Assembly (NCBI GenBank): GCA_037039685.1
Contig: JAWNGF010000002.1
Coordinates: forward strand, 1,302,001 to 1,366,000
From: Ceratobasidium sp. AG-K
Taxonomy: Eukaryota > Basidiomycota > Agaricomycetes > Cantharellales > Ceratobasidiaceae
Direction of reading: 5' to 3'
Length of the DNA: 64,000 bases
Positions 28,403-63,421 of this stretch are shown here, piece by piece (position 1 is the first letter of the stretch; every line of letters starts with the position of its first letter). The position numbers were made by a program, and so were the translations under genes. The notes beneath the pieces were generated by a model that was given only the letters and a program-made list of their open reading frames with translations, was not told the origin of the DNA and did no database searches.

Positions 28403-30469
28403 ATGTGTCCAATGATTCTTACTTTGTTGACCGCCCTTCCTCTTGTCGCGTCAGAGCCATCACATCACGCGCTCGTCCCGCCCCAGCTTCTCAGTCAGGG
28501 GATTTTTCAAAACCATGGGACCATCATCGTAAACCATTACCCGAACCCTACTTCCCTGCTTGATCGAGAGGCTCCGAACTCCAGCTCAGGACCCGGATGG
28601 GGTGATATCGTGGCATTTGTCGTCTTCATACTCTACGCTGGGAAGCTTTGGCACCAGTCACAATTCCCGGCGAGTCATGATCTCACGCGGCGCGCCTGCC
28701 CTTTGCGCTGCCCGGGTCGCCGTCACACTGTGGAGACTGGCGAACCTAGGACTGGTAGGTGATTGTATCGTCTGTAAGGATGGCTAGTTCATTAGAAATA
28801 CTCCAAACCACTTGACCCTGCCTCCCCGTGACCGCGCCGGTACTCCGCACAGTGGTCATCCGGTGAATCCTCGAGGGCGAACCTCAGCTGCTGCGGTTGC
28901 TTCCGCCGGGCCCACTTCGTACAATGTGCTATATGGTAAGTTGCCTTTACCGACGGCTTGGTGACGGGCTTGGCTAATTTTTTCTCGTTCTCAGATCAGG
29001 CCGTGTTGATCGAGGAGCCGGAGCACGACCTGGCTCACACAATTGACTTGACAAATACACAAAGTATATACAGTTTGGAGGGGATGTCTACACCTGTTTG
29101 CCCAACGCTTATGCACGTTATGTAGGTCCTACGAAACCCGAGTTTCCTCCGTCGTGGGACACGCCCGCCTACGATGAAACCGCACTGTCCCCATCCGAAC
29201 CACCCACTGACCCACCGAATATTTCAACGAATGTGTCTTATATACCCTGGGCGTCTGCAGATAGGAAAACCAACAGTGTGCCCACTCCGGGCAATTCTCC
29301 TGGCAGCAAGGTCATTTTGTACCAACCGCGGCATCTCAGTTTACCCTTCGAGGACGGACGCCAACGTAGCCCGCCCAACGTAAAGAAGAGCACTCCGCTA
29401 CAAACAGCTCTATACACTGGATCAGCGAGTCTTTCGATAGCGTGGTATTTCCTTGTTATTGCGGTGAACTACGATGGGGTTGAGGATCCAGAGAACGACC
29501 TACCGCTATTTCGAGATTTGCTCACACAACCCGGCGCACAGCCCCTAGATATTCATTTCGAGTCGCTCGTTGGGTCCGAAGCTACGATTCTCAGCATAAC
29601 AACCAAGCTGGTCGCGATCTATCTGGAAGCCGCACGCAATACTAGTGACTCTCGGGTCCTGGTGCTGCTCAGCGGCTCGGGTAACGACGATAACCAAATG
29701 TGCCTCTCAAACGGAGAGGTCATTACGGAGAAGATTTTACGCAACTTACTAGTCAAGGTACACATGAAATCGAACGTTACTGACATAGAACCAGCACTTT
29801 TTGTAGTTGATATTTGCCGCCCTAATCGGAGCAAGCTCAGCATCCCCAGCTGCCATGTGGTGAATATGATTTGGGCCTGCTCTCCAGGCCAACGGGGATA
29901 CGGCGTCGGGTTAGGAAATTTGCCCAACTCGGTTTTTCTCTTGGCCCTTTGCTGGGCAGCCTCGGATCTCCCTCAAGGTGTCCCCTCGAACTCCTGCCAA
30001 ACATTCAACTTCGAGCAAGTGTTCAGGCGTCGGGTTAGGCAATTGGACAGGCTTATTCTCAGTTGTCACAACTATTGGCACTATGTTGAACCTTCGTGTG
30101 AGCAGTGCGCGAGCCCAGTCGCGCGATGCGATCCACCTGAGCCACAAGTTCCCGAAGGCGAAAGGCCCGGGGTAAGTCGATTGGCTCCTGCATGGAGTAG
30201 TCTTATCACTAATACTTACTTCCAACCTTGTAGTGGGACACGCTCATGGGTCTAGCCGAGCTGATTATGAAAAGATCACGTGAACGTGTGCTTGAAATCG
30301 TGGATGCGTTGACGGATGCCATTCGGGAATGTAGTGAATGGGAACGGCGCAACGTACGTTTACTTCCAACTGCCCACGCCCACGTCGCTGACACCACCCA
30401 TTCCAGACTATTTCCGCCAAGCAAAACCCTCGAGGTGCTACAATGCCGATGTCCCAAGGCGCTGCCTAG
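28403..30469 (+). CDS. Caspase-like membrane protein, copy 1 (catalytic His replaced by Ser)
   Basis: First of eight related genes. The ATG at 28403 opens a signal peptide (MCPMILTLLTALPLVAS), then a short ectodomain with an NSSS glycosylation site, and a membrane segment (IVAFVVFILYAGKLW). The exons between about 28680 and 29073 are uncertain. The exon from about 29074 carries the C14-like domain: strand YFLVIAVNYDGVEDP, LLSGSGNDDNQMCL where caspases have GHG, VVDICRPNRS with the cysteine, and IWACSPGQRGYG. After it comes the Cys cluster H-x5-C-x2-C-x6-C (WHYVEPSCEQC), then a conserved intron and the helix WDTLMGLAELIMKRSRERV. The last exon ends in TAG at 30467-30469. The fold assignment rests on order and spacing of these motifs. 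Proteolysis is unlikely without the histidine. Confidence 0.75.
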
Positions 30470-31048
30470 ATTTTGCCTTGACGTGAGCCACCATGACCAA
30501 GGCCGTTCTGCTGATTTTTTCCCTAGTATCCGACGTTATGTTTCCCTCACTCGTTATGCAGCGTTACAGCCTGTTTTGAAATCTCACCATATGCGCGCTC
30601 ATGCGTCCGTACTTATAGCAATTTATAAAAGTACATGCCAGCACTGAACCCATCAATGTACCTACATGAGAGTGCTCTCGCTTGAGGCCATATGTGTTCA
30701 AACACGGTGCCTCACGATCCACTATGTTCATACTTTGCCCCCACTCGCTGTTTATGAAATATACGATAAAGTTACATCCCGCGCGCATGATTGACCGGCG
30801 TGTATTCGCAAGTAATTTGTGATATCAAGCCCCAAAGGACACTCACCCGAATAAGCTATATTCATGTCTCAAAAGGGGTTACCCTATGCATTTTCGGCTC
30901 CAGACTTTGAATATAATATTTCATAGATACATGCGCATATGTAGCCGAGACCGTTGATTGTGTGCATAATAGATAATTGATAAACGAAGAGGTGTTATGA
31001 ATAACCAGATGCAAATAGATTTCGGGCGGGTTACGCCCCCAGCGTGCA
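30470..31048. other. Convergent spacer between copies 1 and 2
   Basis: AT-rich in its middle part (30890-31010), no gene recognised. It holds the 3' flanks of two convergent genes. Confidence 0.4.
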
Positions 31049-33116
31049 CTAAACTTTCACGCAGAGCACGGGTTGCGTCGCGCCTCGCTCGATTAGATTA
31101 GTATGCGGGCCAGCAACCTTGCGACGCAGGTCAGAGGGTACGTTAGAAACGCTCTGAGGGTAGGGTTAGTATATTGTACGCAGCGACCTTCAACGAACGT
31201 AACTTACGCTGCTTGTTTCCAAAACACGAAACAGCACCATCTTACGGCTCATTATGCTAACAATTTCTTGCACAGAATCGGGACACGCTACCACAATATC
31301 CTGTCCAAAGATACCGAGAGTATCCCACTGCGTGAAAGTCGTTAAATCAATCAAGAAAATGAATTAACAGGAGATCGCTTACCCCTGCTGACTCCCCCTC
31401 GGGAGTTTGTTCTTTGGGTGGGTCACATTTCTGACCCTGATCTGTGCATTGTTTGCATGTATCGGCGCGCTCGTGTATGCGGTCATGTACGCGCGACACA
31501 AGCCCTCCCAGCTGCTTCATTCGATGCTTGAATGCGGCTTCAAAGTTCATGGGACCAGGAGGAGCCGGGCCGTACAGGTCATATGATGCAAGGAAGAAGG
31601 CTAGGAGGAAACATGACCAGGGTACAGATTCGAATGCAAGGACGTGCGCTAGTTGACCAGGAGAGCAAGACCGAACGAGTTTTGTTTGGTTCGAGCTCAC
31701 ATCCGCAGGTTTGATTAGGCGTTTACCAGGGCGGCAAACGTCAGCAAGGATAAGGGACGAGATATCCGGAGTATTCCATTGCGCGTGTATCTCCGAAATC
31801 CAGGGTTGGAAGTCGTTATCGGAGATAAACTCCTGGTTCAATAAGCACATCTGCTCTGCCTCGTCTCCTAGGCCAGAGAGGAATACCAATATCCTACAGC
31901 TGTTGGAAGCGCATCCAGCCTTCAGGTACAGCGACGTGAATACTGTCTTTATTTTATTACGAGTAGCATCGGACCCGCTGACAGATTCAAGATGAATGGT
32001 TGCGAGTGCTGCACTGGACTGGCGAAGAATTTGCTCGAGAAGGGCAAGGTCGTGTTCTGGGTCCCGCACGTGACCATTATTGACCCCAATGAAAAGAACA
32101 AACCACTTGATCCCGGGCAGCAAGGAGAACCTGCTGAAGGAACCAAATAATGCTGCCTTCAGCGGAACTTGTCGAGCTGAACGCAGGACTCGGCGTTCAT
32201 TGCCATGATCGTTGCACAAACTTTTGTAACGAAGTCGAGTCGGGCTATTTGTGGGTGGAGGTAGAGCATGAATGTGCGCCGTAATAGGGGTTGTACTGCT
32301 TGCGGATAAACAGCGGATTCTGGTTTGGGGGGATGCCTGAACCAAGGCGGACCGGTTCCGAGGTGAGTTGGCCACAGCTTTTTGTCAAAACAAGTATAAG
32401 CAAATTGAGTCGCTTTTCTCTTGTTGACACGCACATTTTGCTTCAGCATGGTCCTGTTCACTTCTAGCACGTCTTGGCGGCAAGGGAGTTCGTGTATTGC
32501 ATACACCTAAATATTTAGTGTAGTATTTGAGATTATGTGGCGATACAACTATTGACTCGATACCCTTACCGGGAAGTGCACTGCGAGGCGAAGGAAAGCT
32601 GTCAGTAGCTATTGCCGTAGCAGAGTTCCGGCCCCGCTCATTCGGCGATTGAATATAATCCTTGTGTCGAACATCAACTACATTGAATGAGAAGAGGGTA
32701 GGATGGAAATCTAACTAAGCCAGACTCAAGCAAACAGGGTGAGAATGGTACTGACCAGCACTCGACGCAGTCTGCAAAGATAAAACTGGCCTATTGCGTT
32801 TCGGTGTAGAGCGTAAAAGACGTGCACTCTTGGTTTGATTCACAGAAGCTCGAGTCGAGAATCCGCGGGATTTGATCAATACATAAATCGGGAGTGCGAC
32901 TGTAATCACAATCCACCAATTGTCGAGTTGGTTATATGCGCGTTGGTAGCCAGAGGAAACGTCTAGCATCTCTCGACCGGGCTTTGTAGGATCGTCGCCA
33001 CCACCGTGAACGGCGAGCCTCTGGCATTCTTCAAGTCCCTGGGAGGAAAGTAAACACGCCGTAGCCGCGATTTCGGGTGGCGCGAAGAGCAGATTCATGG
33101 TAGCAGAAAATGCCAT
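31049..33116 (-). CDS. Caspase-like membrane protein, copy 2 (catalytic His replaced by Leu)
   Basis: Starts at MAFSATMNLLFAPP (33116; the next Met is at 33098). A hydrophobic N-terminal segment is followed by a membrane span (NWWIVITVALPIYVLI), a basic juxtamembrane stretch and several linker exons. The caspase-like domain has KWFVLFIGVNNGHVRDPEHD, VFLSGLGDEAEQMCL, LILADVCRPGKRL and VRSCSPGQLAH. The Cys cluster is HERADTCKQCTDQGQKC. A conserved intron separates it from WDTLGIFGQDIVVACPDS, and the last exon begins SVSNVPSD and ends in TAG at 31049-31051. No break is visible. It forms the minus-strand half of a divergent unit whose plus-strand half survives only as a fragment at 33795. The linker exon borders are approximate. 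Confidence 0.75.
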
Positions 33117-33794
33117 ATGTAGTGGTTTATTGGAGAACAACCGCGGGTGCATCCTAAGGCTTTTGCCCCCGCCTCGAGGCAGGGGGGTGAAGCAACGTGG
33201 TTTACCCCACGTGTGGCCACTGACTAAGCAGAGACAGATGTGTTGTTTAACATGCTTGTTCCAATGTTTGGGCGTATTGTAACGTTTTCGTGTGCTCGAA
33301 CCCTCAAGGACCCGTTCCCCCCGGTCACCGAAAAATGAGGAGGCTGGACGGAGCGCGGACGGTGCACGAGCTGACAAGAGAGTTATAGTAAATAAATTAG
33401 TATAAGAGCGGGCCTTGCTCGAAGAAGTCACCTCCCGCAGAATCCGTCAGTACAGAGCTCGCCTAACTCGAACTCGGAGTTGGCATTGGATGTTAGGGAT
33501 AAGCTAACAGCCAGAAGGGGCGGTTGGTTGCGGGTAAAGGGCGAGAAATCGGCAAGCGCACTAGGGAAAGTACCGAGAAAAGCGGGCGTGTTCCAGTCTG
33601 AGAATGGGCCGAGACCATACTGTTGTAGTCAGCCGAAGCAAGCGTCAAGCATAAGGGATCGAGAGAGATGTGAGGAACTGGGTGGCGGATGGCATGTAAT
33701 GGCAAGTGATTCAGATCCCGTTCGAGCACAACGATGGGTGGTGGTATATGCCATAGCTTGTGAGTTCTCACATCAAGAAGACGGGACAACGCAA
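33117..33794. other. Divergent spacer between copy 2 and fragment 1
   Basis: Holds the copy 2 promoter and the hairpin described separately. The N-terminal and caspase-like exons expected for a plus-strand partner are absent; open frames here (for example around 33480-33810) resemble nothing in the family. Confidence 0.4.
33163..33190. repeat. Perfectly centred hairpin upstream of copy 2
   Basis: The core gcctcgaggc is palindromic and is flanked by complementary runs of C and G (CCCCC on the left, GGGGG on the right), giving an inverted repeat of about 26 bases. It lies 50-75 bases before the copy 2 start codon, in what should be its leader or promoter. A similar gcctcgaggc word occurs at about 38343. 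Confidence 0.5.
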
Positions 33795-34842: not shown

Positions 34843-34858
34843 ATCTAGTCGCACGTGA
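34843..34858. repeat. Left target-site duplication of the LINE
   Basis: The 16 bases ATCTAGTCGCACGTGA recur directly after the A tail at 37975-37990, where the leading A is shared with the tail. Confidence 0.85.
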
Positions 34859-39020: not shown

Positions 39021-41110
39021 TCAGTCTCCAACAATGTTCCTCGGACTCGCGGACTCGGCTTGTGACACGGGTAGTAAAGCACCCCGAGGATGTGATGTCA
39101 CGGCGCTTGCATGATGAACAATAGGAGCCGATTGAGAACTTTGAGGCGCGGACGGAGTGCTCTGCAACATGTTAGTCTTCCCATAGTACCCTCAGTATCA
39201 ACCACCAAACTCACAATGTTATCGACCCAAAGCCCACTCGCTCGCATGTTCTGCATAATGGTGTCGACAATAACGCGCACGGCGCCGGGATTGTTGGTCA
39301 TAATGAACATACCGAGCCGGTAGAGATCGGCGAACTAAACAAACAACAAAAGTGTAAGCACGTTGAATCCAGCTTCGTCAAAGGAATGACACTCACGCCA
39401 GCATACCCTTCAAGTGTTTGGAGCCCAGGGTGATCACATAGTACTCCACTCTCGACGCAATCATCGCATCTCCCGACCACGGCGTGGTCGTAGTCGTAGA
39501 TCCATAATCTGTACTTGCTTACATGACCCAGCCAGCTTCTCATTGAATTCTCAAACTCTGCGGGAGTAGGGGGGCCATCGTTCGCAGCCAGGAAAAAGGC
39601 CAGGTAGAAGCACGATCTGGAAACATGCTTTGACTTGAATTCTATTGCTTGCGCGAACTGGCAAGGCGAACATGATCGGATTAGGTTGACCATATCCCCA
39701 GCGTTAAAGCTTGGTATGTTGCTCTCCCTACAAATATCGATTATGATTGTCGGGGTCTGAGCGCCACGCAGGTTGAACCGTTTGCGAATAGTTGACATCC
39801 ACTTGTGGATATCATCCCCTTCGAGGGATGCTTCCTCCGGTAAGCACATCCGGTTATGTTCATTGCCCCGGCCGGTCAGGAATACGAGCAACCTAGCACG
39901 GTTGAGAAAGGCTAGCAGATAAAGCCAGATAAACCAGCGCCTAATAGTTTCGACCGTCAAGTCATCGTCAGCAAGAGGCGAGAACCGCATGGTGGGATCG
40001 GCGACGGGTCGATGGAGGATGCCCTGAAAGACTCCGAGGTCATGTTTTGGGTCTTTAAGCCCGTCGTCTACGGCCACGAACAAGACGGAGAGATTGCCCG
40101 TGTCCTGTGCGGAAAGATCTTTCGAACCGGTGCTTAGCGACTTATTCAATCCCTCGGTCTCGATCGGGTGTGGTAGAGGTATATCGGTTCCCCAGGCCAA
40201 GGTCTGGGATCGTGGTTGGAGGGTCGTGACGAGGCGGTTTGGATTGGGAAGACTTCTGGAACGCGAGGCTACGGCGGTCGACACGGGACGGCGGGTATGC
40301 GAAGGATTCGATGGTAGATTTCCGGGTGGTTGGATCCAACGGGAGGTTATGCTAGTCAGAAGGTTCTTGAGGAACAGCAGCACTAAGATGACAATCGCTG
40401 GGACTGGACAACGAACAATGAGAAGCTGGGACATTGATAGCACAACCCGTGCACTCGCACCTTCGATGGGTGAAATGCCATCTCCAGGATTGGGGTCGTA
40501 TTCCTCGGTCACCGGGTGTAAAATGGCCTGCTCTGGAGGATTCCGTGAATACCAGTAGGTCGAAATATTCTTCGATAGGACTCACCCTGTAGAGCGCTAC
40601 GACGGGATGGATTGTTGTCGAAAGCTGACGCCGTAGTTGATGACTTTCCCCGATACTTTGCTACATGGGGTGCGTCGTCGATTTCTCCTAGCGGAGGTTG
40701 ACATAGGGGAGCTGAGGGTTTCCTGTTAACTAATGCGTTTGAACGCCAGGAAAATCGCACCTACCATCATCTAGTATTGGTGTGCCGGCCAATACCGAGT
40801 AGCTGCGCCTTGGGGCATGGGGCAAAGGATGGCTCTGTGACGCTCGCCACTCGTGTCCACACCATTTACCAAACGAAAAAACGGCAAGAACGGTCGCGGC
40901 AGGGGTAAAAATCGTCCAGATGTAGATAAGCGTGAGTTGGCGGTCGTGGAGAAGACGTGGTATGTGTAGGACGCATTCTATGTTCGTGTCGACGTAGACG
41001 GACGATGCTGAAATCTTTATAAGGATTTCGGATGGTAGTGCATGGCTAAGGGCGAGTATGAAGATCGTGGTCAAAAGAAACCAAATCTTGACGTGTGTAA
41101 ACGTAGACAT
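39021..41110 (-). CDS. Caspase-like membrane protein, copy 3 (catalytic His replaced by Arg)
   Basis: Start MSTFTHVKIWFLLTTIFILA at 41110 gives a signal peptide ending near HALPS, a 35-residue ectodomain, and a membrane segment (IWTIFTPAATVLAVFSF). The caspase-like domain follows a Pro/Ser/Thr/Arg-rich linker and reads LSVLFVAVDDGLKDPKHD, VFLTGRGNEHNRMCL, IIIDICRESNIPS, IRSCSPCQFAQ. The Cys cluster is HAVVGRCDDCVESGVLC. After a conserved intron comes FADLYRLGMFIMTNNPGA; the final exon (STPSAPQSSQSAPIV) ends in TGA at 39021-39023. A TATA-like CTATAAA lies 90 bases upstream (41201-41207). It is the closest relative of copy 5 in this window and forms a divergent pair with copy 4. No break is visible. 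Confidence 0.78.
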
Positions 41111-42430
41111 CGGGGTTTGGAAACATAACAGTTGGTGGTCACAGATACTGATGTCGTCAAAGGCGGGAGATGAGGCCACCAGCCCTCTCGGTCGCTCTGC
41201 TTTATAGGCCTATTATTCCTTTGCATGCAGGATGGCCTGACGGGAAACTGGGCGGTGCCGGATCGGCCCATCGCTTTTCTCGGACATTTCAGTCAGGTAC
41301 GGTAACGAAAGAAGCTGCAAAAACGGGATCCCACCATAAAATTACGACTTCCCCACCATAACCTTACCCTTACAGAAAGGTTATTCGCCTTCGTATGTAT
41401 GTTAGCCCAACTACGACAAGCTCTCGTCTGCACCCACAACTATTTTTCGACGCGCTTCTCCACGTCACGCTGAGACCGCGTTTGCTTCCGGCCTCGCGAC
41501 GCACTGCATTGATGTGCCTGCCAGACACCCCTAGCTTTTCTATTTTGCCGGTCGGCCCCAGCACCTACGCAAGCACACCGTGCCGAGGCAGTCCCTGCAT
41601 ATACCCTCGTTGATTTGTGGATCATTGTTCCTCACGAAGATCCCAAAGTCAAAAGGTTTTTTCGTGAAGCGGCTGTAGCTGGCGCGCGGCGGACCCGGGC
41701 TCCAACAAGGTCAGTTGGCTTTCCATTTATAGAAGTTGGAGATATCACGTATATTCACTATCGCGTTATTGTACCAATTGCGATCTCTTAGGTGTCATTC
41801 TTCCACGCCCCTCCTCCCTGGATCGAATTCGGAGATGCCCATTGCGCTCTCTGACTGATGACGGAACGGATACATGCGGACCTACGATCATCCACTACGT
41901 TCATTTGCTCATTGCCCCAGCTATTGCCGCGCGTCTCCCTGCGGTATGCTGCGAGTGTGTATTGCTTCCCGCGCGTCACCACATCCCGGCGCGAACAATT
42001 ACTCCGTCGTGTTTCTGCATGGATCTTCTAGAGTCGCCCACGCGGTTGGCAAGGCCTGGAAGCCCCAATCGGTTGAACTCAAGGATACGTCCTTCGTCAG
42101 GCGGAAATTCCCGCAAGAGATTCTGGCCAAATCATGAATACTATAGCCCATTTCGACAAAGACCGAAGCTTCGTGTCTGCAGAGTCGCCCACACCCTATG
42201 AGTCAGCATCCCATGACACGAATCCAGTTGGTCATTCTTTCATCAGCAGACAATGCGGCTATCATATAGGTCTAGTGCTTTTTGACGGGGAGGTGACATC
42301 GGGAGGATAGCCGAGCTACTCAGGCGAGAAGCCCGTGTATCTTAAAATTCGGGGTCGTTTTCATGGAGAACATATAAGGTGAATGCCGCTGCACGGGCTC
42401 TTCGTTCGCTATCCCGCAGTCCCACTCGCA
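41111..42430. other. Divergent spacer of copies 3 and 4, duplicated at copy 5
   Basis: Collinear over about 800-1,000 bases with 48085-48960. Shared words occur in the same order: CGACGC-CTTCTGC/CTCGTCTGC region, TGCGCTCTC, GTGTTTCTGC against GTGCGTTTCTGC, GGTCTTCTA, GCCTGGAA-CCCAATCG, CATTTCGACAAAGAC, ATGAATCCAG. Frames in both copies carry stops, so this may be a dead third gene or a long shared regulatory region. TATA-like ACATATAAGG at 42370-42379 precedes the copy 4 start by about 55 bases. Confidence 0.55.
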
Positions 42431-44600
42431 ATGCCCGCGACCACAGATGTAGTTTCTTCCCTCGCCGGTGCGGATCACGTTACGGAGATCTGCATAACGA
42501 CGTCACTTGCCCTTGACGTGCACCATGTTGCCATGGAGAGCGTCAAGTTAACAGTCAATGTCGTATGCCAACCCTCTACCGGCCTCGGTTCTCGCTTCAA
42601 CCATTTCGTACTCCTCGCCCTCTGGTATGGCTGTTGGATCGGCTTTGCATTCGTGCTTCATATTTTCGTCGGGCGCTATTGGCCCCGATCTCGAAACGGA
42701 GCTGGGAAAAGGCCCCGGAGCTGTCGATATCGGATTCCAACGGGGCAGGGTCGTACAGGAGTGAGTTGCCCGTCCATACAGGGAGAAGGTAGGTGCGATT
42801 CCTACCATTCACCGAAAAGTTGGGCTAACTCGATGCTCTAGATAGCTCACCGTTTCCCTTTGCAAACGTCGACGACGACACCCTCGCTGATGTTTCGAGC
42901 ACACCCAATGGGAGAGGTCGTCGGTCTGCTACCGTCGGTAGCAGCGTTATGCTGTCTCGTTTTAACCCTTTGGCCGGCGAGTTTTTTCACAATAAAGGTT
43001 GACGTTGCGCTGAAGCACGTCTTATCTTGAACAGACCAAGCTGACACCCAGAACTCTTTGACGATCAACGAGAGCGACGCTCCTACTACAAATTCACACG
43101 GTATGTTTGATCGACAGCCCCATCGGCGGAGTAATAAAACTCCGGCCCTTCTTTCCTTCTCCAGGCCATTTGACATCTCAAACTCTATCGAATCGGCCCC
43201 CATCGACTTCTTTGATACAGCCGGGCGATCCTGTAACCCCTCGCCCCGGCGTTGCATCTCCAAACACCGGCAAAAGACGTACATATCTCTCAGGGCCTGT
43301 TCGTTCCCAAAGTCGCCGGCGAGCACACCAGAATGCAATCCTGGACGTTTTCGAGCCTCGATTAGCTGAGCCTATTCCCCTGTTGGCGACGCTCCTCGCC
43401 TGGACCACCCTACCTACACCACCTGCCAGTAGTTCGAGCGTGTTTGAGCCCAGGCCGGCTGATCCAACCAGGAGTACACCATTACTCGCGGCCTTGTATC
43501 CCCGACTTGGCCACCTCACGGTAGCTTCTCGGACCAAGTGGTTTATATTCGTCATCGCAGTGACTTGCAAGGAGCACGAAGTAATAGACCCCAAGTTCGA
43601 TCTCGCTTTTCTCCGAAAGGTGTTCGACCAATCCAAGTCCACGAACGTCCGCTTTGAATGTTTGGCCGAAGGGGACGCTACTCTCGAAAACATCCGGGCC
43701 AAGCTTGAATCCCTCTACTGCGAAGCTCGGGAAACCCACGGTCCATTTCGGTTGTGCATCTACCTTACTGGCATAGGAGACGGCGATAGCAAGATGTGCC
43801 TCCTTGGCGGCGAGGTCGTCAGTGAACAAGAGTTGGGAGGTTGGACACTAGGCCTACAAGATCAATCGACCGGCAGCCGATACTCAAACTCTATAAGCGC
43901 AATATTGGACTTCTGCCGTGAGGCAATGAAGCAACGGGACTTGATGGACGATAGGCTAGGCCTTGTTTGGTCATCTTCGATTGGTGAACCACCGTCTGCA
44001 AATGCTTACTCTCTTGGTGATGGCCTGCCAATGTCTTGCTTTCTTATTGCCCTTTTTTCGGTTGCAAACAATATCACTACTGGCTCCAACGCATTCGGGG
44101 AAGCAATTAAACTACAGCTTGAACAAATCGGGGACTTCTTGCGCTTTTGTTACGGCAAGCAGCATGAAACCAATGGACAATGTGAACGCTGCAAGGCTCA
44201 AGGGGAGAATTGTCTTCTGCTTGCACTGCAGGTGCCCGAGTGGGATTCGGCCGGAGTGAGTGGCTCGTAGTGCATCAACCTTCCAATCCTAACTTGACCC
44301 TTCAGCTCGACATGCTTACCGCCCTAGCAGAGCTTATCAAGGCCGAGTATTCTGAGTATGCACTTGAGGTTTCCGAAGCGCTCGCCCGGGAAATGGGAGA
44401 ACAAGGCTTTCTGGCTAGAAGTGTAGGTCTGGAACTAATGTTGAGCGACTTCAAATTAATAATTCGCAATGTTTCAGAACGACTGTCATTTGCCCTCTGG
44501 CTCGAAGCAAGCATCCTCCGTTCGGGAAGCTCAAGCTTCGACGCCACACTTTCGTGGTGCAAATGAGCGAACCTCCCAAATAGTGGAGCACATGGGTTGA
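42431..44600 (+). CDS. Caspase-like membrane protein, copy 4 (catalytic His replaced by Ile)
   Basis: The ATG at 42431 is preferred over one at 42383 because the latter is only a few bases from a TATA-like element and is missing in the duplicate at 49135, whereas 42431 is conserved. The N-terminal part holds VKLTVNVVCQPS and a membrane span (FVLLALWYGCWIGFAFVLHI). Linker exons join cleanly (NSH to GHLTSQTLS across 43091-43165). Domain: KWFIFVIAVTCKEHEVIDPK, IYLTGIGDGDSKMCL, AILDFCREAMK, LVWSSSIGEPPSA (here the second conserved Cys is Ser). Cys cluster: HETNGQCERCKAQGENC. Then, after the conserved intron, LDMLTALAELIKAEYSEY and a last exon NDCHLPSGSKQASSVREA ending in TGA at 44598-44600. The frame is unbroken. 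Confidence 0.78.
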
Positions 44601-45654: not shown

Positions 45655-47767
45655 TCACGCCTCGACGATGATACTCGGAGACTCGGCCTGTACCATCAAC
45701 GGTGCGGCACCCCGCGAATGCTGTGCTGCCGCGCTTGAATTCTGCACAATAGGGGTTGATTGGGGGGTTTGAGACATGGAGGCCCGCTGCAGAACATAAG
45801 CTTCCAAAAGTGCTCCCGACACTCGCCAGACTTACGTTTCTCCGGCTCCAAAGCTCAATATCCGTCTCCTCTTTGTGAAAGCGATTAACGATATCGCACA
45901 TGGGGCCAGGGTGTTTCGTTGCTATGAACACACCAAGTTCATGGAGGTCGGACCACTAGTTGGTCCAAGGAGCATCAGGATATGGAATCTCGACGTATCA
46001 CAGAAGCAGTACGTACCCCGTCGTCCCCTGGTTCAAGGGTTTGAGGTTCGGGTTGGTCACACGTCGAATCGTTCGTACAGTCCTTACAGTCCCCCGGGTT
46101 GGCGTGCCAAATTTCATGGATCTGCGCTCTGAGCTTGCCTACTTGACCCAACCACTACACGAGCGCCTTCTTGAATGCGTTTGGACTAGGAGGGCGGTCA
46201 TTCGCCGCAAGGAAAAAGGAGAGGTAGAAGCACGACCTGGATATGTTTTTGGGCACAAAACCTATGGCTTGTGCAAGTTCGCCAGGTGAGCACGACCGGA
46301 TCAGGTTAGCCAGGCCCCCAGCGTTGAAACTCGCCAGGACCTGTTGCCTACACACGTCGAGTATAATTGTGGGGATCTGAGCGCCGGGAAGGCGCACGGT
46401 TGATAGCCAGTCGAAAATATCTTTCTCGGCGAGAAACGCATTGCCCGGCAAGCACATTCCGCCCTCGGCGCCTCGACCAGCTAGGAACACCAGCAATCTG
46501 GAGCGGGTAATAAAAGCCAACAAATAGAGCCGAATAAATCGTCGTCTGATGGTGTCAAGCGTCACATCGTTTCCGGCAAGTGAAGAGAAGGGGATAATGG
46601 CGGGGTCGTTGACGGGCTGGTGGAGGATAGTCTGAAAAACACCGAGGTCGTGATCTGGGTCTCCCAGTCCGTCGTCCGCGGCGACGAAAAGGACGGAGAG
46701 GTTGTCGGCAGGCGGAGCGGAAAGGTCTGCTGGGCCGGTGTACAACGACTTGTGCAACGTCAACGGCGTGATTTCGGTTGGATTGGGCGGAGACGGTTCG
46801 GGTTCGACATCATGAAATAACGTGTTGTATCGTGCCTGAAGGCGGGTGGCTACGACGAGGAGCCTCGGATCGGGCACGCTCCGCGATCGTCCGGGTCCAA
46901 CCGTTGCACAAGGGTGGCAGGTTTGCGGCGGATTGGATAGTGGGTTGTCGAGAACCTCGTACCACCGAGTAATAATCAAGGGCAAATCGTCGTTGTGGGA
47001 CAAGGATGGTTCAGCTGCAACTAGCGCCGGATACCGTATCAGTGAGAAGTCAAGGCATGGACACAAAGGGTTATTTACATATCACTTGAGCGGCCAGAGT
47101 GGTATTGCAACATCCGGATTCGAGATATCGATCGGAAGCTGCGATCGATGATGAGCGTGAAACGGCACCTGCTAGGGGAAGCCGATGAATACGGGTGAGC
47201 CGAAAGATATCCGAACGTGACTTACTCTGCAGCACGTTACGACGGGATGAAGCACCGTCGGAAGCCGACGCCATAGCGAGGGACTTTCCCTTATTACTGA
47301 ACGGCTGGGGACAATCATTATGTGCGTCATTGGTCATTTCTGGGCTGGTTGGCGGGAGTCGGCTAAGATTTTTCGATTAACAAGAGCTGGACAGCAGAAA
47401 GATACCACCTACGGTTGACGCAGGCTGGTTCGCCAACCGAGCCGGAGTGGTTGCACCCAGGGCGCGCGATCCATCCCTGCGACACCTGCTCCCCTTGTCT
47501 ACGCCATGTAGCAAACAGAAAAGCGACGAAAAAAACGACCGCAACCAGAATAAGAATGCACCAAGTGCGAAACTGTACGCGTTGACTGTCGGTAGGGGCA
47601 TGTAGTAGTTGTAGGTCATAAGTATTGTCCTTGCCGACGTAACTGGCTGACGTCAGATTCCGTACAGGGAGTCTGGACGGCAGAGCGTGGGCAGGGATGA
47701 GTAGTCTGGTCGTGGTCAAGAGCAACCCAATGGCCAGTCCGACGTGGGCGTTCAAATTTATAAACAT
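45655..47767 (-). pseudogene. Caspase-like membrane protein, copy 5, with one in-frame stop
   Basis: Start MFINLNAHVGLAIGLLLTTT (47767): signal peptide, a short ectodomain with an NLTS glycosylation site, membrane span (CILILVAVVFFVAFLFATW). Domain: LSVLFVAADDGLGDPDHD, VFLAGRGAEGGMCL (His replaced by Arg), IILDVCRQQVLAS, IRSCSPGELAQA. A TAG at 46155-46157 follows NAFKKALV. Beyond it the same frame continues without further stops through WLGQVGKLRAQIHEI and the Cys cluster HANPGDCKDCTNDSTC, then conserved introns, WSDLHELGVFIATKHPGP, and a last exon RASMSQTPQSTPIVQ to TGA at 45655-45657. It is the duplicate of copy 3. The single stop makes it a young pseudogene or, less likely, a truncated or read-through product lacking the Cys cluster. 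Confidence 0.8.
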
Positions 47768-49134
47768 CAAAGATAGAGCCGGGTAGGGGGGCTTCAAAGT
47801 GGTGAGGATGCCGTCACCTCCTGCCGTCGATCCTTATGTGGAATCCCCATCGCAGAGGGATTTCTTTTCGAACGTCAACTGCGGTGCCCGCCAAGCGGTT
47901 TTATTCCTGGCTTTTGAGTCAAATACCCAAGAAACCAAATGTCTTGGGTATCCCACCGATCGCGAGACCGTGACTCTGGACGCGTCACGCTCACCTGCAC
48001 GTGAGTTGCCCGCTCTCTCTCTCTCATGATCAAAAAACTTGGTAAATTAAACTCAAGGTGACGTTGTGTTTATAATATTTTGCTTTACTTCATGCCTTAC
48101 ACTTTGTTATGGGAATCACAGGCTGGCGTATGTATCCCACCCGCCCACGACGAGCTCTTGTCTAGGTCTCAACTACATTTTCGACGCCACGATGTCAACG
48201 CGTTTTGCCTTCTGCACTGTGTTGACGCGCCTGCCAATCCTTACGCCGCCCATCCATCCGTCAGGCCAAAATCTCCGGGCACGTTGGTTCAATGATGGAT
48301 CATCTGTTTCTCAAGGAGATCCAGAAGTCGAAACGCTTTATGACGGAGCCGTGGATGCGCCACAGAACCTGGCTTCGACAAACTCGGTCGGCTTTTCATT
48401 TGCGGAAAGTGCGAGCTGTTTAATAAATATCAATTATCGTGTTGCCTTTACGATTTGCGATATTTCGGACATCATCCTCCACGCTCGACGGTCAATCTCA
48501 ACCAGATGGAATCCGGGCATGCCCTTTGCGCTCTCCTAACGTAGCGCGGGGATGGTACACACGGGGTCATGCGATGCTCGTGGCTCCACCTGGCGGCGGG
48601 TTTCGCGGTGACTGTGTGACTGTGACTGCGAGTGCTATTGCCCTTTACCCATCAGCGCACCTCGGTGCCGGCCGTGTGCGTTTCTGCCTAGGTCTTCTAA
48701 GATCTTTCACTCGGCCAGCGAAGCCTGGAAACGCCAATCGAATGGGGATCAACCCAAAGTTGTGTCTCAGAGGCGGGACTCCCACGACAAATTTTGCCTA
48801 GATTGTGGGTGATCCATTTCGACAAAGACCCAAAGCTCTGTGCCAACGGAGCCGCTGATGCCCCACGAGCTCAGCTTCTCATGAATCCAGCTGTTCTCTC
48901 ATTTCATCCGCAAGCAATGACGCAATCATGCGATGTTCGTATGCTAGGTGCGCAAACTACAGTTATCTGGGATCGTTTCAGCACCTCCGACAAGAGGTAA
49001 CACCTGGGAGCCCAAGTTCTTTAGGCGAGAAGCCAAACTGTCCCAAAAGATCAAGACCGCTTCTGATCGAGTACATATGTGGAGGATTCTATTGCGCCGC
49101 TCTTGTTAGCCATCCTCTGCGGCCCTCCCTTGCC
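47768..49134. other. Divergent spacer between copy 5 and fragment 2
   Basis: Collinear duplicate of 41111-42430 (see there), including the CATTTCGACAAAGAC and ATGAATCCAG words at about 48818-48890. A plus-strand frame at 48157-48539 (MSTRFAFCTVLTRLPIL) is open here but closed in the duplicate, so it is not supported as a gene. Confidence 0.5.
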
Positions 49135-49479
49135 ATGTCCTCGCCGATTAATATTGAAATTTCTTCCCTTGTCGAATTAATGCCCCTCGTCCCCGGCATA
49201 CGCCAACTTATTGTGGAGAAAGTCAAACTAGCTGTCAATGTTGTATGCCAACCTTCCACGCCCGAAGTGATCCAAGGCGACCTGGATTCTCGCTCCAACC
49301 ACCACACCCTACTCATCCTCTGGTATGCTTATTGGGCTGCCGTTGCACTTGGGCTTCATATTCTGGTCAGCCGCTGTTGGCCTCACTCCCGAAACGGAAG
49401 CAGGATCGCATCCCAAAGTTATCCGTACCGGATATCCAATTTGAATAACACGCGGAAGCTCCCTAGTCTTGCATTATAA
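49135..49479 (+). pseudogene. Fragment 2: N-terminal membrane exon of a caspase-like copy
   Basis: MSSPINIEISSLVELMPLVP at 49135 matches the start of copy 4. The shared core VEKVKLAVNVVCQPST is followed by a membrane segment (LLILWYAYWAAVALGLHILV) and RCWPHSRNGS, against copy 4 RYWPRSRNGA. The frame stops at 49477-49479, and the linker, caspase-like and C-terminal exons are absent: the 3' end of copy 6 begins about 150 bases further on. It is the remnant of the plus-strand partner of copy 5. Confidence 0.78.
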
Positions 49480-49632
49480 TCATTGTCATTAGTTACTGTT
49501 ATTATAGTGATGTAGGCTCTAATGTAAAATTCATCTAGGTGCGTCTAGCATAAAGAGTGTGGAATATGAAAGAATGTTGTTTGGTAGAAGCTCTGCCCAA
49601 TTACACCTGGATTATGGGCTGGATAACTGTGT

Positions 49633-51453
49633 CTACGCCTGGAATACGCAATGGCTTGCACCCCGCATATGCCGCGCTGTGTGGCCTGTATGTTGGGCAG
49701 ACGGCGGATCCTGAAAATTAGAATGTCAACAAACTTATGCTCCGCTAACATCGATAGATCAACTCACAGTAGCCACAGCGAACTTGCACCGCTTCATTTC
49801 TTCGAGATACAAAGCATCAATCTTGACGACTGAATCGCAATGGTTTTTCGTAATAAGCATGGCCAACTGGCGAATATCCTCCCACTAGATAACAAAACAA
49901 CATTAGTGGACAAATGCCAACAAACCAAACGACACCCACCCCTGCTCGTGATCCGTCGGGTACCTGCAGCCCGGGTTGAGCGCACCTTCCTTCTGGCTCA
50001 TCGCTACAATAGTCGCAAAGCTCCGATCCTTTGTGCCACACCATGTGGCTGTACAACAAGTACCTCCCCAACTCGTCCAACCGGCGTTGAAACGCTGCTT
50101 CAAATTCTGCAAAGCCAGCCCCGGCACTCTTGCACACTTGAAACAACGCAAGCCAGAAGCACGACATGGGTAGAGCTGGGTCCTTGAGTTCAATTGCATA
50201 AGAACGTTGTCCGAGGGAGCAAGACCAAACCAAGTTAGCTACACCACTGGGGCTCGCACTCGGGGAGTCCTTGCTCTCACGACAGATGTCGGTAACAATC
50301 GTGACGGGTTTGGTGTGTAGCAACCCGAGGCGCGTACGTGTGGTCGACAGCCAATTGCAAAGGTCATCTTCCGAGATGGATACGTTGTTGGAAAGGCACA
50401 TTCGATTAGTGGAGTTGCCTTGACCAGATAAAAATACGAGCATTTTGGATCCTGTCAAAGTCGCCCGCAGGTCCAGCCAGAGCAGCCAGCCTTTGATATT
50501 GCTAAGGGTGACGTCGGCGCCAGTCAGTGACGTGAAGCGAATGGCCACATTCTCAGTGCTAGGCGCTTGGAGCGCAGTCTTGAAGGCCATGGCATCGTGT
50601 TCCGGGTCTTCTTCGCCGTGGTTGACCCCGACAAAAAATACAGATAGTTGTTCCGTGGGTGGTGCAACGGAATCTTCCGGTTCTTCGGTGGACGACGCAA
50701 GCAGATAGGTTTTATCCGATGGTGACAAAAATCCATCGCCCTCGTGCAGTAAACTTTGGTACCGCGATTGAATCCGACTCGCTTTGGTGTCATAGAGCGT
50801 CGGAATGGGGATGCTCTTGCCTCGCTCAACGGCTATGACGCGGCGGGTCCTTGTCGGGATTGGAGGGGCTTCTACTTCAACCCAGCGAGGGAATGTTTGA
50901 ACCAGAGAAAAAAGCGTCCTCTGGCATCGTCCCGAATCATGTACGTGTTCTGCTCCCATCGCATCAAGGCCATCTTCTGGAACCGCAGGTGCCTGAGTGA
51001 CGGCCCAGCCTGCGAAAGCGCCAAATTAACAGGTTGATTCGGGAATGGTACCAATCCCAACTTACTGCACCCGTTCGGACCAAACGTCCCTTGGTTGGAA
51101 ACCGCAGCCAAGGTGAACGTCCTACCCCGAGTGCGGTGCTGCAACGTTGGCATCCCTCGCCCCACCCAAGTTTGGAACGATAGTCGATAGCACTTGATAC
51201 CAATCGCAAACGCAATGATCGTCCACCAAACACACCAGGGAATGAATATGGGCTGGTGCGTAGGGAGTGCTGCTGGGGTTGGATTCCCTGTACAGTTGTC
51301 GGCAAGGAGTGCAGGTTTTGTCGCAAGAGGATTAGACAGAAATGGCTTTCCGGATGTGTACAGCTGACCGGCAGACGAGAAAGAGTGTGATAGTACAACA
51401 ACCCAGAACCAGGCTTGGGGGGGGGCAATGGAACTTGATGCGTTGGCCTCCAT
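49633..51453 (-). CDS. Caspase-like membrane protein, copy 6 (catalytic His replaced by Gln)
   Basis: Start MEANASSSIAPPQAWFWVVV at 51453: signal peptide, ectodomain of about 45 residues with an NCTG glycosylation site, membrane span (WCVWWTIIAFAIGIKCY). Domain: LSVFFVGVNHGEEDPEHD, VFLSGQGNSTNRMCL, VTDICRESKDSPS, VWSCSLGQRSYA. The Cys cluster is HKGSELCDYCSDEPEGRC, with seven residues before the last Cys. The conserved intron is followed by WEDIRQLAMLITKNHC, and the last exon DPPSAQHTGHTARHM ends in TAG at 49633-49635. The caspase-like exon is one long unbroken frame. There is no divergent partner upstream: the next 7 kb contain nothing recognisable. Confidence 0.77.
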
Positions 51454-58628: not shown

Positions 58629-60902
58629 ATGATTACCATCAACGACCCGCCCCCCTTTCATGACCATTACTTCCCTCCCTGCCGTGTTCAGTCACTTCGA
58701 GACCTATGGTCTCAAAATACCCTTGTGCGCCAGCGGAGGTCGACCTCTAGGCCGGTATGCGTATCATCTATACTACCAGCAAACGGCAGGCAACGTATCT
58801 TCGCAAGTGAAGTGAGTCTCAACCATCTCGGTACCCACCTGTCTCACTCCCTACCCCTAGGTCGCCGACCTATACTCGCACGCACAGGATCCTTATAATC
58901 ATGACTACCATGCTGGTTATTTTTGCGGCAGTATGCATTCTGGGCGTGATAATGGATCTATTGCCGCTTCGTTCTCCGTTTAACCAACAATCCGTTCCCG
59001 TCGGTTTGTCTCCGTCGCCACCTCCCAAGGCTCCGGCTGGGTGCAAGCTCCGAGGTGACGGACAGGGCACCGTACAGACCTTCGTATCACTCACGATGGA
59101 GGTGCATCATGGTGGTGAGTTTGGTGACGGTCTCGTGGTTATTCGAGCTAACACGTCTATTGTTTCACAGCGAGGGTCTACGCAGCCGCCAATGCGGGCA
59201 GGGGGCGCGTGAATCCACTCATACCAGCGTTGGCGGAAAATGTTGGTGCGACGAAGGTTGACTCTACTAATCGTGGGCGGACCCCAGGTCGGTGGTCATT
59301 AGCTTTTACTTGATTAATGGCGGTCTTATTTGTGTATCTCGATCACCATATTCGTAGGCACCCAAGCCGGCTCTCGCTGCGCGACAGACCCCGTGGCCCA
59401 GAATCCTGCGTCGTCGACTCTTGCCTATAGCCTCTCTGAAGCTTCATTGCCGATCATCGAGGAGGGTGCTTCTAATGAACCGAGTGCTGGGCCTACCTGT
59501 AGGTGTTCTGCCTTGACTCTGATAGCTTAACCGCTTTAACCGTAGTCTCATCCCTTCTTGTAGCCGCAGTTGGGTCTTGTATGCCGCGGGGAAGCGGGCC
59601 GAACCCCGCTCAGCTTGGGCCTTCACCATTTCAACTCACCGGCGCGTCTGGGAACATCAAAAAGTCACTTTATCCGCTTATCCTCGATCCTGTTGGGCTG
59701 ACAAACCACAACGACGCTACATCCTCTTCCCCCGCACGTCTACCTCAAGAATCTCCATGGAACCACCTTGATAGGAACTTGTCTGCCGCCGTGCGGCACT
59801 TGAAGAATTGCTATATGCTCGTTGTCGCTGTTGGTGTTGACGGCCTCAAAGACCCCTCGATTGACCTCAAATTCCTGCGGGGGATCTCCGAATCAGCAGT
59901 CCTCCGGCTCCGATGGCTTTCTAACCGAAAGGTCACCCATAAGCTCGTTCGGCGCAAGTTGCGGAAGCTCTACATCAAAGCCCAGAAAACCGGTAGCTCG
60001 TCATGGGTACTCGTTTATCTCACCGGCATGGGCGACCACCGTGGCAACATGTGTTTGTTTGGGCGGAACACGATTGGAGTACAAGACCTAGAGGGTTGGC
60101 TCGCAGAATTTGACGGGCCTCGGCTGCACGTCGGCGTTGTATTCGACATTTGCAGAAGGACTTGCCTCTCGCTTGCCCCGAGTCGCCACTGCGGGCTTGC
60201 TCCCGTTTGGTCATGTTCGATAGAACAATGGGCCTACGGCCTCGATTTTGGCGAAAATTTGCCGAGCTCGTGCTTCCTCAATTCCCTCTTCTTAGCGGCG
60301 CATGACGTTCTCGTCGGATATGACTCATTTGAAGCCGCATTCAAGCATCGAATGACTCAGCAGGGCAAGCTATTACAATTCATCTATCAGAAGAGGCACG
60401 AAATAAGTGGGCATTGCAAAAAATGCCCCGAGGGAGGCAAATGTGCCCTTCCCGAGCCACAGGTCGCTGAATGGGGATCAGCCGGTGTGAGTGTGGTTTG
60501 TCGCAAAGCATGCACGCGATAATTTTTGACGGCTCAGTTTAATACGTTTCTCATCTTGGGCAAGCTCATTGTCTCCGAATTTCCCCATGTCGCACACCGT
60601 GTCGAGGCCGGGATGACCAAGAAGATGATGGGATGGAAGTTTCTTTGCGATGAGGTGCGTTTTCGGGCATGGCTTTGACGCCTCAAAGAGATATTTATGT
60701 GTTACAGAGCGTCAATGCTGCGGCAACTCCTGTTGCTGCGCCCCTCAGTTCCAAAGCTCATCACTTTCCCATAACTTGTGATACAAGCAGTGCTTGGGAC
60801 AGAAGTGGAGTAATGCTGCAGACTACAGCGCCGAGCGTGGGTTCACAGGTGGGGAGGATGGAATTTGCTTCACCTCGAAACAATGTGTCCATTTTCAGCT
60901 AG
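58629..60902 (+). CDS. Caspase-like membrane protein, copy 7 (catalytic His replaced by Met)
   Basis: The 5' end is uncertain: either ATG 58629 with an upstream exon, or an ATG near 58892-58910 directly before the membrane segment (MLVIFAAVCILGVIMDLLPL). From there exons join in one frame: VHHGARVYAAANAGR, NRGRTPGTQAGSRC, and AGPTAVGSCMPRGSG-type joins at 59115-59575. Domain: YMLVVAVGVDGLKDPSID, VYLTGMGDHRGNMCL, VVFDICRRTCLS, VWSCSIEQWAYG. The Cys cluster is HEISGHCKKCPEGGKC. Then, after the conserved intron, FNTFLILGKLIVSEFP and a long last exon SVNAAATPVAAPLSS ending in TAG at 60900-60902. It is followed 316 bases later by copy 8 on the same strand. No break is seen. Confidence 0.75.
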
Positions 60903-61218
60903 AGTGTGTAATCTCATATAGACGGTCCAGGCTTTACCGTGGCCATCCTTATCACCTTCGAGGGTTGGCGATGCATCCATATGTCACTTCTCGAAACACG
61001 GTGTGAATGTCACCAATACACGTGTATTCCATGATCGCCCATCTATTTCCAGCTTTGGGAGCTTGATTGACTGACTTGGGTGGATCGGCGCGAGCGGTCC
61101 CACTGGCAGCTCGCAACAGCGGTGCATCAAGCGACACCATGGCGAGAGCCCACGACCATAAAACTCGGTCTTGTCGACGTTCCTTTTTTTCCGTACTTTT
61201 GCTGTTAGTCCGGGTCGT

Positions 61219-63421
61219 ATGAACCGAGTAGTCTGTTCTTCCCTTATTTTTGCCGGCCATGCGGCGCTAGCGCTCCCTCACTCCCTTCCAACAACCGCAG
61301 CGTACATCGAGGCCGTCGCGCCGGGTTCTCAGTACACCTTTCCCGAGATTGGCCATTATCATGTCCAGGACACACTGTCATGTCAATTCGAACAACCAGA
61401 TGCTCCTACCTTTAGCCGACCGTGCGTATGACCCCTCGACTCGTGGCGCGCCTAGCTAACCCATGATTGTTAATAGACACCGAGCAAGACTTGCATTTTC
61501 GTGGGGATTCTTATTGGGCGCAGTCGTCGCAGTGTTAGTGCTATTCGCCATTGCTGGGTCCTACTTGGTGATCACGATACGCGTCGGTCAACAAAGGGGT
61601 GAACCGGTGAGCGCCGCACCGCCTCAGTCACTCGGCCCTAGCATGTCGTTAAGCGCTGCTCTCAGCGGTAAGACGATTTATCCATTCGTCCGTACGGACC
61701 TTGTTAAGCTCTTTCTTCGCCAGCAACGCACCAGGCTCCCCCAGCTTGCATATGCCAGAGTCCGGTCATCCAGCCGCAGCCTCACGAATCTAGACCAGCT
61801 GCTGAGCCGTCTATCCCCTGGGTCGTCGGGGAAGTCTCCCGATGTGAATGATTTTATTCCATTTAAGTGAGACTTCTATTGATCACTGCTCCACCAGTCG
61901 TATTGAGTCCCGAGACTAGTCCGAGGTTACGGGTATTGCACGTCCAGGAGAGTCCTGGTCATGGAATACCGACGTTAGGTTAGCTGTCGAACTATTCACA
62001 ATCGGAGCTTGTTGGTTGACAACTTTCCGGTGTAAAGTCTTGGTACAGAAGCTCAGCCTCAATACACAAAACGGTTCGGCTGCCAGCTCGGGCGAGCATC
62101 AGGCACATGGTACTACCTCGCACTCAGTCGAGCCCAACACCAGCTCCCAAACCGCCGATGACGTGCAGCCCGCCGATGCCCCACCCGTCCCTGTTAGACC
62201 ACCGCGATACCTCAGCTGGGCACAGACCCTTCGAGCTGGGTCGGCCCCGCGCCCCATAATTCCAATCCCTCCGCCCTCCCGAGCCCAGACACTTGTTCAG
62301 AGCCTGGCTGGACTGTCTTGGATGGAGCGCAGTTTTGTCGATATTCTGGGGGTTGGCCTGAGCTGGCAACATGATCCGAAAAGAGCACTTCCAGGCCCGG
62401 CGTATGATATGCCTTGGCTCGAGAATCTGTTTGCAGACCAACGAGACGTACGATTTCAGTACTTGCTAGACAACACTGCTACCCGAGATATGATCCACGC
62501 GCGGATGAAGGAGATGCACGAGCGGGCTACCCCCGAAACCCGTCTAGTGTTTTATTTTGCTGGTCATGGGTTGGCAAATGCCTTTCAGCTCTATGATCCA
62601 GATTCCGCACCTCTCGATGAGGTTGCCCTGAACGAATGGATTGTCGAATTTCGCCGAACAACCTGCACGAACGCGCCGGTCTACATCGTGTTCGATTTCT
62701 GCCGCGACAACCCAGTCGAATCCCAGGCAAATTTAGCTGAAGATGTCCACGTTATTTGGGCGTGCTCGCCTGGGCAGTCGGCGCTAGACATACGCTTGCC
62801 TTCAACGGGACCTGATCACCTGCCACGCTCATGTTTTTTGATCGCACTGGTACTTGCTGCTGATGATGCTTCGAAGAATTCGAGTTCGTCGCCTTGGGAA
62901 AACCTCACGATGAGAATGAACGAGCTGGTCAGGGTTGTACGGGGGGTTCGATGCTTTGTCTCAAGATGTCGGCCAGCATGGTTCTTTTGCCGATGTGAAA
63001 CTTGCTCGAGCGGAAATCTCTGTCACCACGATAAACATCCTGAAGAACAACGTTTATTTCAAGATATTGGCATAACTACTCTCGAGGTGCGTTGGGTGCC
63101 TGGTGCGGTCCTCCCTTGGCTGACGGATTCCGCAGCCTGAAGGGGACCCAACTTTTGCAGCCGTCGCGCAATTCCTAGCAACCCGTTTCCCGTTACATAT
63201 TCAGCGAGTCAGTAATCAAGTGGGAAACCACCGCTGGGTTATGTTCTTTGTATGTTTCGATCTAATGCGCCAGCCATTTGAGAATGCTGACGCAGAGCAC
63301 ACAGAACCCGGTTCGCATCGCAGCGAATCGGGGCTCTATCATGCCTCGTGCGCTCCCTCGTGACGGCACACAGGCTACCTCCCGAACCACGTTTCGACAG
63401 CTGACCGTTCCAGTAATGTAA
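61219..63421 (+). CDS. Caspase-like membrane protein, copy 8, with the GHG histidine
   Basis: Start MNRVVCSSLIFAGHAALALP at 61219, 60 bases after a TATA-like CATAAAAC. Exon one holds the signal peptide and a roughly 50-residue ectodomain; exon two begins HRARLAFSWG and carries the membrane span (LLGAVVAVLVLFAIAGSYLV). The join into the long domain exon (open from about 62037) is unresolved. Domain: FVDILGVGLSWQHDPKRA, LVFYFAGHGLANAFQLYD, VYIVFDFCRDNPVES, VIWACSPGQSALD. Both members of the caspase dyad are therefore present, and the MCL motif of the other copies is absent. The Cys cluster is CRCETCSSGNLC and lacks the leading His. The gene continues past an apparent stop at 63140 through an intron (donor after TTLE) to PEGDPTFAAVAQFLATRF, and a last exon STQNPVRIAANRG ending in TAA at 63419-63421. 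Confidence 0.75.

What the first reader, a model, noticed from the sequence alone, without database searches (positions are those of the whole stretch)
28403..63421. Local expansion of caspase-fold proteins in which seven of eight lost the catalytic histidine
Aligning the eight domains by eye, the caspase His position (GHG) reads G-S-G, G-L-G, G-R-G, G-I-G, G-R-G, G-Q-G and G-M-G in copies 1-7; only copy 8 keeps GHG. All eight keep the D-x-C-R cysteine motif. In the caspase/metacaspase families both residues form the catalytic dyad, so copies 1-7 should be pseudo-proteases. The flanking Gly residues, hydrophobic strand and downstream motifs are conserved while the His varies freely, which suggests retention for a non-proteolytic role such as binding or sensing. 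This could be an undescribed pseudo-caspase family linked to self-recognition or cell death.
Basis: partly seen in the sequence, partly recalled or inferred. Interest (0 to 1): 0.92.

Follow-up and report, generated by a model that had tools for sequence, protein, structure and literature searches.

The report
Fungal pseudo-caspase family missing catalytic histidine
A fungus carries a cluster of caspase-like genes in which one branch lost the histidine needed to cut proteins but kept the partner cysteine and is still protected by natural selection, which suggests a working role other than cutting.

Summary
In detail: in the eight window copies the catalytic-His column reads S, L, R, I, R, Q, M, H, and D-x-C-R is invariant. 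The family is larger than the window: a ninth copy (GHG) lies just right of it, a near-identical second cluster lies on contig C3, and five more G-x-G sequences lie on C1. Of 14 members (C2 cluster plus C1), 12 are G-x-G and 2 GHG; all keep D-x-C-R. All 20 database relatives of copy 8 (15 named Rhizoctonia solani) keep GHG, as do nine of ten other caspase-like sequences read in this genome; the tenth is G-H-A. The 12 split off with 97.9/99 support and show omega 0.27. Predicted structures match caspases. Most members have an upstream hydrophobic segment and a zinc-knuckle-like H/C motif. Best reading: one His loss founded a retained, probably membrane-anchored pseudo-caspase subfamily, perhaps regulating GHG paralogs. 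Lack of proteolysis and any link to cell death or self-recognition are untested, as is the clade's presence in other species. Copy 5 has an in-frame stop here; its C3 counterpart is open.

The parts
28403..28758 (+). copy 1, N-terminal exon: signal-like start and hydrophobic segment (best 19-mer of the latter 1.41 on the Kyte-Doolittle scale)
   Evidence: mechanical gene model
29126..30171 (+). copy 1 core exon, G-S-G (Ser codon 29677-29679), D-I-C-R (Cys codon 29815-29817), H/C motif
30234..30608 (+). copy 1 C-terminal exon (end uncertain)
   Evidence: mechanical model
32756..33370 (-). copy 2, N-terminal exon with a weak hydrophobic segment (1.52; not found at the 1.6 cut-off)
31383..32377 (-). 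copy 2 core exon, G-L-G, D-V-C-R
40765..41196 (-). copy 3, N-terminal exon, signal-like and membrane segments
39397..40532 (-). copy 3 core exon, G-R-G, D-I-C-R
42383..42788 (+). copy 4, N-terminal exon with membrane segment
43075..44255 (+). copy 4 core exon, G-I-G, D-F-C-R
47413..47820 (-). copy 5, N-terminal exon with membrane segment
46155..47066 (-). copy 5 core frame, G-R-G, D-V-C-R, ended by an in-frame TAG before the H/C motif; the C3 counterpart is open
51066..51453 (-). copy 6, N-terminal exon with membrane segment
49940..51009 (-). copy 6 core exon, G-Q-G, D-I-C-R
58861..59114 (+). copy 7, N-terminal exon with membrane segment
59546..60486 (+). copy 7 core exon, G-M-G, D-I-C-R
61219..61843 (+). 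copy 8, N-terminal exons (61219-61421, 61477-61843), signal-like start and membrane segment
61920..63086 (+). copy 8 core exon, G-H-G retained, D-F-C-R, C4 motif
48928..49479 (+). orphan frame resembling the N-terminal exon of copy 4, no caspase-like core behind it on this strand
   Evidence: frame; resemblance seen by eye only

Best explanation
Copies 1-7 and five relatives on contig C1 are a clade of pseudo-caspases, probably membrane-anchored. An ancestor shared with the GHG-bearing caspase-like proteins (copies 8 and 9 and Rhizoctonia solani proteins) lost the dyad histidine once; the clade then multiplied, and the vacated position drifted while fold, flanking glycines, cysteine and most of the C-terminal H/C motif were kept by selection. 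Shown: His absence, Cys retention, predicted caspase fold, the clade's separation in one tree, purifying selection. Inferred: no peptide cleavage; membrane anchoring; action as tethered regulators or decoys that pair with GHG paralogs through the caspase fold, as FLIP(L) does with caspase-8; continued use of the old active-site pocket for structure or binding. My odds: retained pseudo-caspase clade about 0.85; regulation of GHG paralogs about 0.45 given that.
Against: No functional data of any kind. Pairing with GHG paralogs rests on gene proximity and on analogy. Strict keeping of the Cys is not what the described pseudo-caspases show and could mean remaining chemistry. Outgroups in the tree are on very long branches, and their attachment has 0/41 support. 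Foldseek TM-scores are modest (TMq 0.40-0.46 in the rows shown) and pLDDT is 71 and 67. Copy 7 haplotypes differ by 13 nonsynonymous and 1 synonymous change (p 0.21), so selection may not be purifying everywhere.
Confidence: 0.5

Rival explanations
1. Still an enzyme. The Cys stays a nucleophile and another residue replaces the His, for instance the His behind the domain that is invariant in the G-x-G clade, or the Cys does other chemistry.
For: D-x-C-R invariant in 12 of 12 G-x-G members, and a His behind the domain is invariant there too.
Against: That His is spaced like a metal ligand: H-x(3-5)-C-x2-C-x(5-7)-C in 11 of 12, while copies 8, 9 and 14 of 20 database relatives have a C4 version without it. 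No distance between His and Cys could be measured, since the tool gives no coordinates.
Confidence: 0.15
2. A receptor-like or scaffold family that works without GHG partners: the variable N-terminal part senses or anchors, the caspase fold serves only as an interaction platform.
For: Hydrophobic segment upstream: 8 of 8 window models reach 1.3, 11 of 14 members have a stretch of 1.6 or more (in copy 1 that stretch is the signal-like start); N-terminal exons look more divergent than the core (by eye). C1 copies have no GHG member found beside them.
Against: The hydrophobicity scan also rings in other frames or stretches upstream of copies 4, 5, 6, 7 and 9, so it is weak alone; gene models are mechanical; no ligand or partner known.
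Confidence: 0.25
3. Decay: dead or dying duplicates of a protease.
For: Copy 5 stop here, copy 8 frame broken on C3; e3 lost a Cys of the H/C motif; orphan frame at 48928-49479; partial hit at C1:3767509-3767634.
Against: Each of the 12 G-x-G members has at least one open core frame over a total tree length of about 7.5 substitutions per site; omega 0.273.
Confidence: 0.08

Closest known systems
Rhizoctonia solani 'Peptidase C14 caspase domain-containing' / 'ICE-like protease (caspase) p20 domain' proteins (P0001-P0020)
   Same: Same family as copies 8 and 9: 40-52% identity to copy 8, GHG and D-F-C-R in 20 of 20, C4 motif in 14 of 20, upstream hydrophobic segment of 1.6 or more in 9 of 20
   Different: The G-x-G clade lacks the His and has an H-C3 motif in place of C4
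Human FLIP(L) (passages of PMC7586951)
   Same: Caspase-fold pseudo-protease encoded near its active paralogs
   Different: FLIP(L) has R and Y at the dyad and tandem DED domains; here the Cys stays and a hydrophobic segment precedes the domain; no partner shown
Trypanosoma brucei TbMC1 and TbMC4, bacterial pseudo-orthocaspases (abstract and passages of PMC6426788)
   Same: Caspase homologs lacking a complete dyad
   Different: TbMC1 is HS, TbMC4 YS, pseudo-orthocaspases most often YS: the Cys is lost there and kept here
Acropora caspase-X (passages of PMC4715348)
   Same: Lineage-specific caspases with an inactive caspase-like region
   Different: Inactive and typical domains in one protein, His and Cys both lost

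Membership tests
Caspase-hemoglobinase fold / Peptidase_C14 | caspase-like fold | tested here: met
   Models of copies 1 and 8 match caspases, copy 1 also metacaspases, MALT1, legumain and CHAT
Caspase-hemoglobinase fold / Peptidase_C14 | Pfam PF00656 above the curated cut-off | tested here: inconclusive
   met by 2 of 8 (copies 1, 8), just below in copies 2 and 6, no match for 3, 4, 5, 7
Active C14 peptidase | His-Cys dyad | tested here: not met
   12 of 12 G-x-G members lack the His; copies 8 and 9 have both
Pseudo-caspase | dyad residue missing, fold retained | tested here: met
Pseudo-caspase | no proteolytic activity | not testable with these tools
   needs an assay
Pseudo-caspase | maintained by selection | tested here: met
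   omega 0.273 for 12 members, omega = 1 rejected
FLIP(L)-type regulator | both dyad residues replaced | tested here: not met
   Cys kept in 14 of 14; so not filed as a FLIP(L) member
FLIP(L)-type regulator | binds and regulates an active paralog | not testable with these tools
   only proximity to GHG copies 8 and 9 is seen

The most novel reading that the evidence does not exclude
A fungal family of membrane-tethered, receptor-like pseudo-caspases in which loss of the His but strict keeping of the Cys turned the protease pocket into a binding or signalling site that controls GHG caspase-like paralogs of the same cluster in self-recognition or cell death.
Probability: 0.2. Interest if true: 0.85.

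Novelty: new variant of a known kind. Interest (0 to 1): 0.57.

Why it matters
The pseudo-caspases in the passages I read are from animals, protists and bacteria, and those whose residues are given lose the Cys, alone or with the His. A fungal clade with the reverse pattern (His lost, Cys fixed), with GHG and G-x-G copies side by side, would give a natural set for asking what a caspase fold does without cutting and whether fungi have FLIP-like control of caspase relatives. Rhizoctonia solani AG8 has been noted for abundant CHAT and C14 genes (passages of PMC4014442), so the question concerns a gene-rich and little understood set.

Tried and rejected
Homolog search with the eight-sequence alignment A1 gave nothing. 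This is not evidence of absence: the same database gave 20 relatives for copy 8 alone; only the 7998 candidates sharing most words were scored. No protein search was left for a G-x-G query; the third went to a fatty acid synthase exon, meant as a check that the database holds fungal proteins.

PDB by sequence: the A1 profile gave six matches with E from 0.1 to 0.77 (four small iron-transport/repressor proteins on the Cys-rich tail, two GPI-anchor transamidases on the core); copy 8 alone gave one, heparanase, E 0.26. NCBIfam: copies 1, 2 and 6 none, copy 8 one domain far below its cut-off (four of eight copies given).

Papers: ten searches and passages of seven papers (PMC4014442, PMC3192844, PMC13304501, PMC7586951, PMC6426788 with abstract, PMC4715348, PMC11596484). 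In listings and passages I saw no fungal caspase clade without the His; the library lacks most subscription papers, so this is weak.

Idea rejected: alignment slip at the His; flanking glycines, the preceding strand and the model's strand 87-97 fix the place. Idea rejected: simple decay (see rivals).

Rows dropped. omega used 12 of 14 members (copies 8, 9 left out), the C3 sequence for copy 5, and 233 columns with letters in at least 11 of 14. Haplotype dN/dS used 8 of 9 pairs (copy 8 left out because its frame is broken on C3; copy 9, GHG, is included). The tree used 11 of 20 database hits and 6 of the 10 outgroup sequences read, and left out two columns rich in His (the dyad column and one before it); L080 joined the GHG clade on a branch of 2.7, which I take for an artefact or a distant true relative. 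In the 14-member tree copy 4 stood next to copies 8 and 9 with support 54. Of the 40 PF00656 matches, four are family members and 10 of the other 36 were read; L006-L008 were printed in the wrong orientation and not judged. Own-genome searches scored 23-25 candidates each, used four of the eight copies as queries, and so give lower bounds. In one search the scan of P0005, P0013 and P0018 stopped at an earlier GHG and covered only part of the upstream region. At the 1.6 cut-off nothing was found upstream of copy 2, d2 and e3.

Full report
OBSERVATION. The column between the two invariant glycines reads S, L, R, I, R, Q, M in copies 1-7 and H in copy 8; D-x-C-R is invariant. Pfam Peptidase_C14 is above its cut-off only in copies 1 and 8, just below in 2 and 6, and absent in 3, 4, 5 and 7.

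EXTENT. The window is C2:1302001-1366000 of a 53.6-Mb assembly in 17 contigs. Four of the eight copies were used as queries in it. They find a ninth copy with GHG just right of the window (C2:1366934-1367920), a second set on C3:2026867-2116550, and five sequences on C1 (22-26 kb and 3770-3783 kb). The C3 set is collinear and 96.5-99.9% identical in 8 of 9 pairs (the ninth, copy 8, 1069 of 1073 positions), so I take it for the other haplotype; that is inference. The C2 cluster plus C1 gives 14 members: 12 G-x-G (S L R I R Q M S L L L L) and 2 GHG; all 14 keep D-x-C-R. The close pair d1/e2 (dS 0.11) differs at this very site, TCG against TTG. Counts are lower bounds, as 23-25 candidates were scored per search.

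CONTROLS. Twenty database relatives of copy 8, 15 of them named Rhizoctonia solani, all keep GHG and D-F-C-R. Ten other C14 sequences of this genome keep the His, nine as G-H-G and one as G-H-A; two pairs among them are near-identical, and 26 of 36 non-family C14 matches were not read. In what I read the loss is confined to one clade. A tree made without the dyad column splits the 12 from GHG members plus outgroups with 97.9/99 (SH-aLRT/bootstrap), which fits one loss; the outgroups sit on very long branches.

SELECTION. For the 12 G-x-G members omega is 0.273; the best of four omega = 1 runs (kappa 2 to 3.5) is 194 log units worse. The six-member subset of copy 7 and the C1 sequences gives 0.306. 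dS is near or beyond saturation for the distant pairs, but haplotype pairs agree: 43 nonsynonymous and 30 synonymous changes over 8 pairs, omega 0.46, p 0.0014. Copy 7 goes the other way (13 to 1, p 0.21). Of 219 gap-free columns 20 are invariant, among them both glycines, D, C and R; the His column is faster than 75% of columns.

ARCHITECTURE. Mechanical gene models put N-terminal exons, then a linker, before the domain. In the N-terminal pieces all 8 have a 19-residue stretch of 1.3 or more on the hydrophobicity scale, copies 1 and 2 below the usual 1.6; at 1.6, 11 of 14 members have one upstream, but the scan also rings in other frames or stretches. Nine of 20 database relatives have one, several of the others being short. 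Membrane anchoring is therefore likely, not shown. Behind the domain lies H-x(3-5)-C-x2-C-x(5-7)-C in 11 of 12 G-x-G members, and C-x-C-x2-C-x(5-6)-C in copies 8, 9 and 14 of 20 relatives: a zinc-knuckle-like motif, metal binding inferred. The models add further exons behind the core in all eight copies.

BROKEN COPIES. Copy 5 stops early in this window and is open on C3; copy 8 is open here and its frame is broken on C3. Intact versions of both exist. An orphan N-terminal-like frame lies at 48928-49479.

MECHANISM. A caspase-type Cys without its His should not cleave peptides (catalysis by the His-Cys dyad: passages of PMC7586951, PMC6426788). Fold and Cys kept under selection point to a non-proteolytic use. 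I favour regulation of the GHG paralogs of the same cluster, by analogy with FLIP(L), whose gene also lies beside those of its active paralogs (PMC7586951). This step is inference. Rivals: an enzyme with a displaced base, a receptor-like role without GHG partners, and decay, which the selection result speaks against.

KNOWN OR NEW. The pseudo-caspases whose residues I could read lose the Cys, alone or with the His: FLIP(L) R/Y, TbMC1 HS, TbMC4 YS, pseudo-orthocaspases most often YS, Acropora caspase-X both (PMC7586951, PMC6426788, PMC4715348; passages). Here only the His is lost. Ten paper searches showed me no fungal equivalent, but the library is partial and the clade could not be searched in other fungi. 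I file it as a new variant of a known kind.

Noticed in passing
window 35525-37324: Transposon remains inside the cluster: a Tc1/mariner-type transposase (HTH_Tnp_Tc3_2, DDE_3) at 35528-36325 (-) and an RNase H domain at 36734-37321 (+).
   Followed up: partly
G000:C3:2045501-2110132 against C2:1352893-1361503: Between copies 6 and 7 the C3 cluster is about 65 kb long against about 9 kb on C2, a large insertion or rearrangement.
   Followed up: no
G000:C15:33764-67687: A second local cluster of five C14 matches; the two read keep G-H-G and read H-C-F-S-G and H-C-Y-S-G at the Cys.
   Followed up: partly
window 59503-60486 (copy 7) and its C3 counterpart: 13 amino-acid against 1 silent difference between the two versions (p 0.21), unlike the other pairs.
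   Followed up: partly
window 49940-50959 (copy 6) and its C3 counterpart: The most diverged pair (96.5%); 19 of 20 amino-acid differences lie in the last 125 of 340 residues, including around the H/C motif.
   Followed up: partly
window 16625-22809: Fungal fatty acid synthase exons left of the cluster.
   Followed up: partly
G000:C1:300-360 kb and C1:6600-6660 kb: Two near-identical sets of C14 matches about 6.3 Mb apart on one contig.
   Followed up: no
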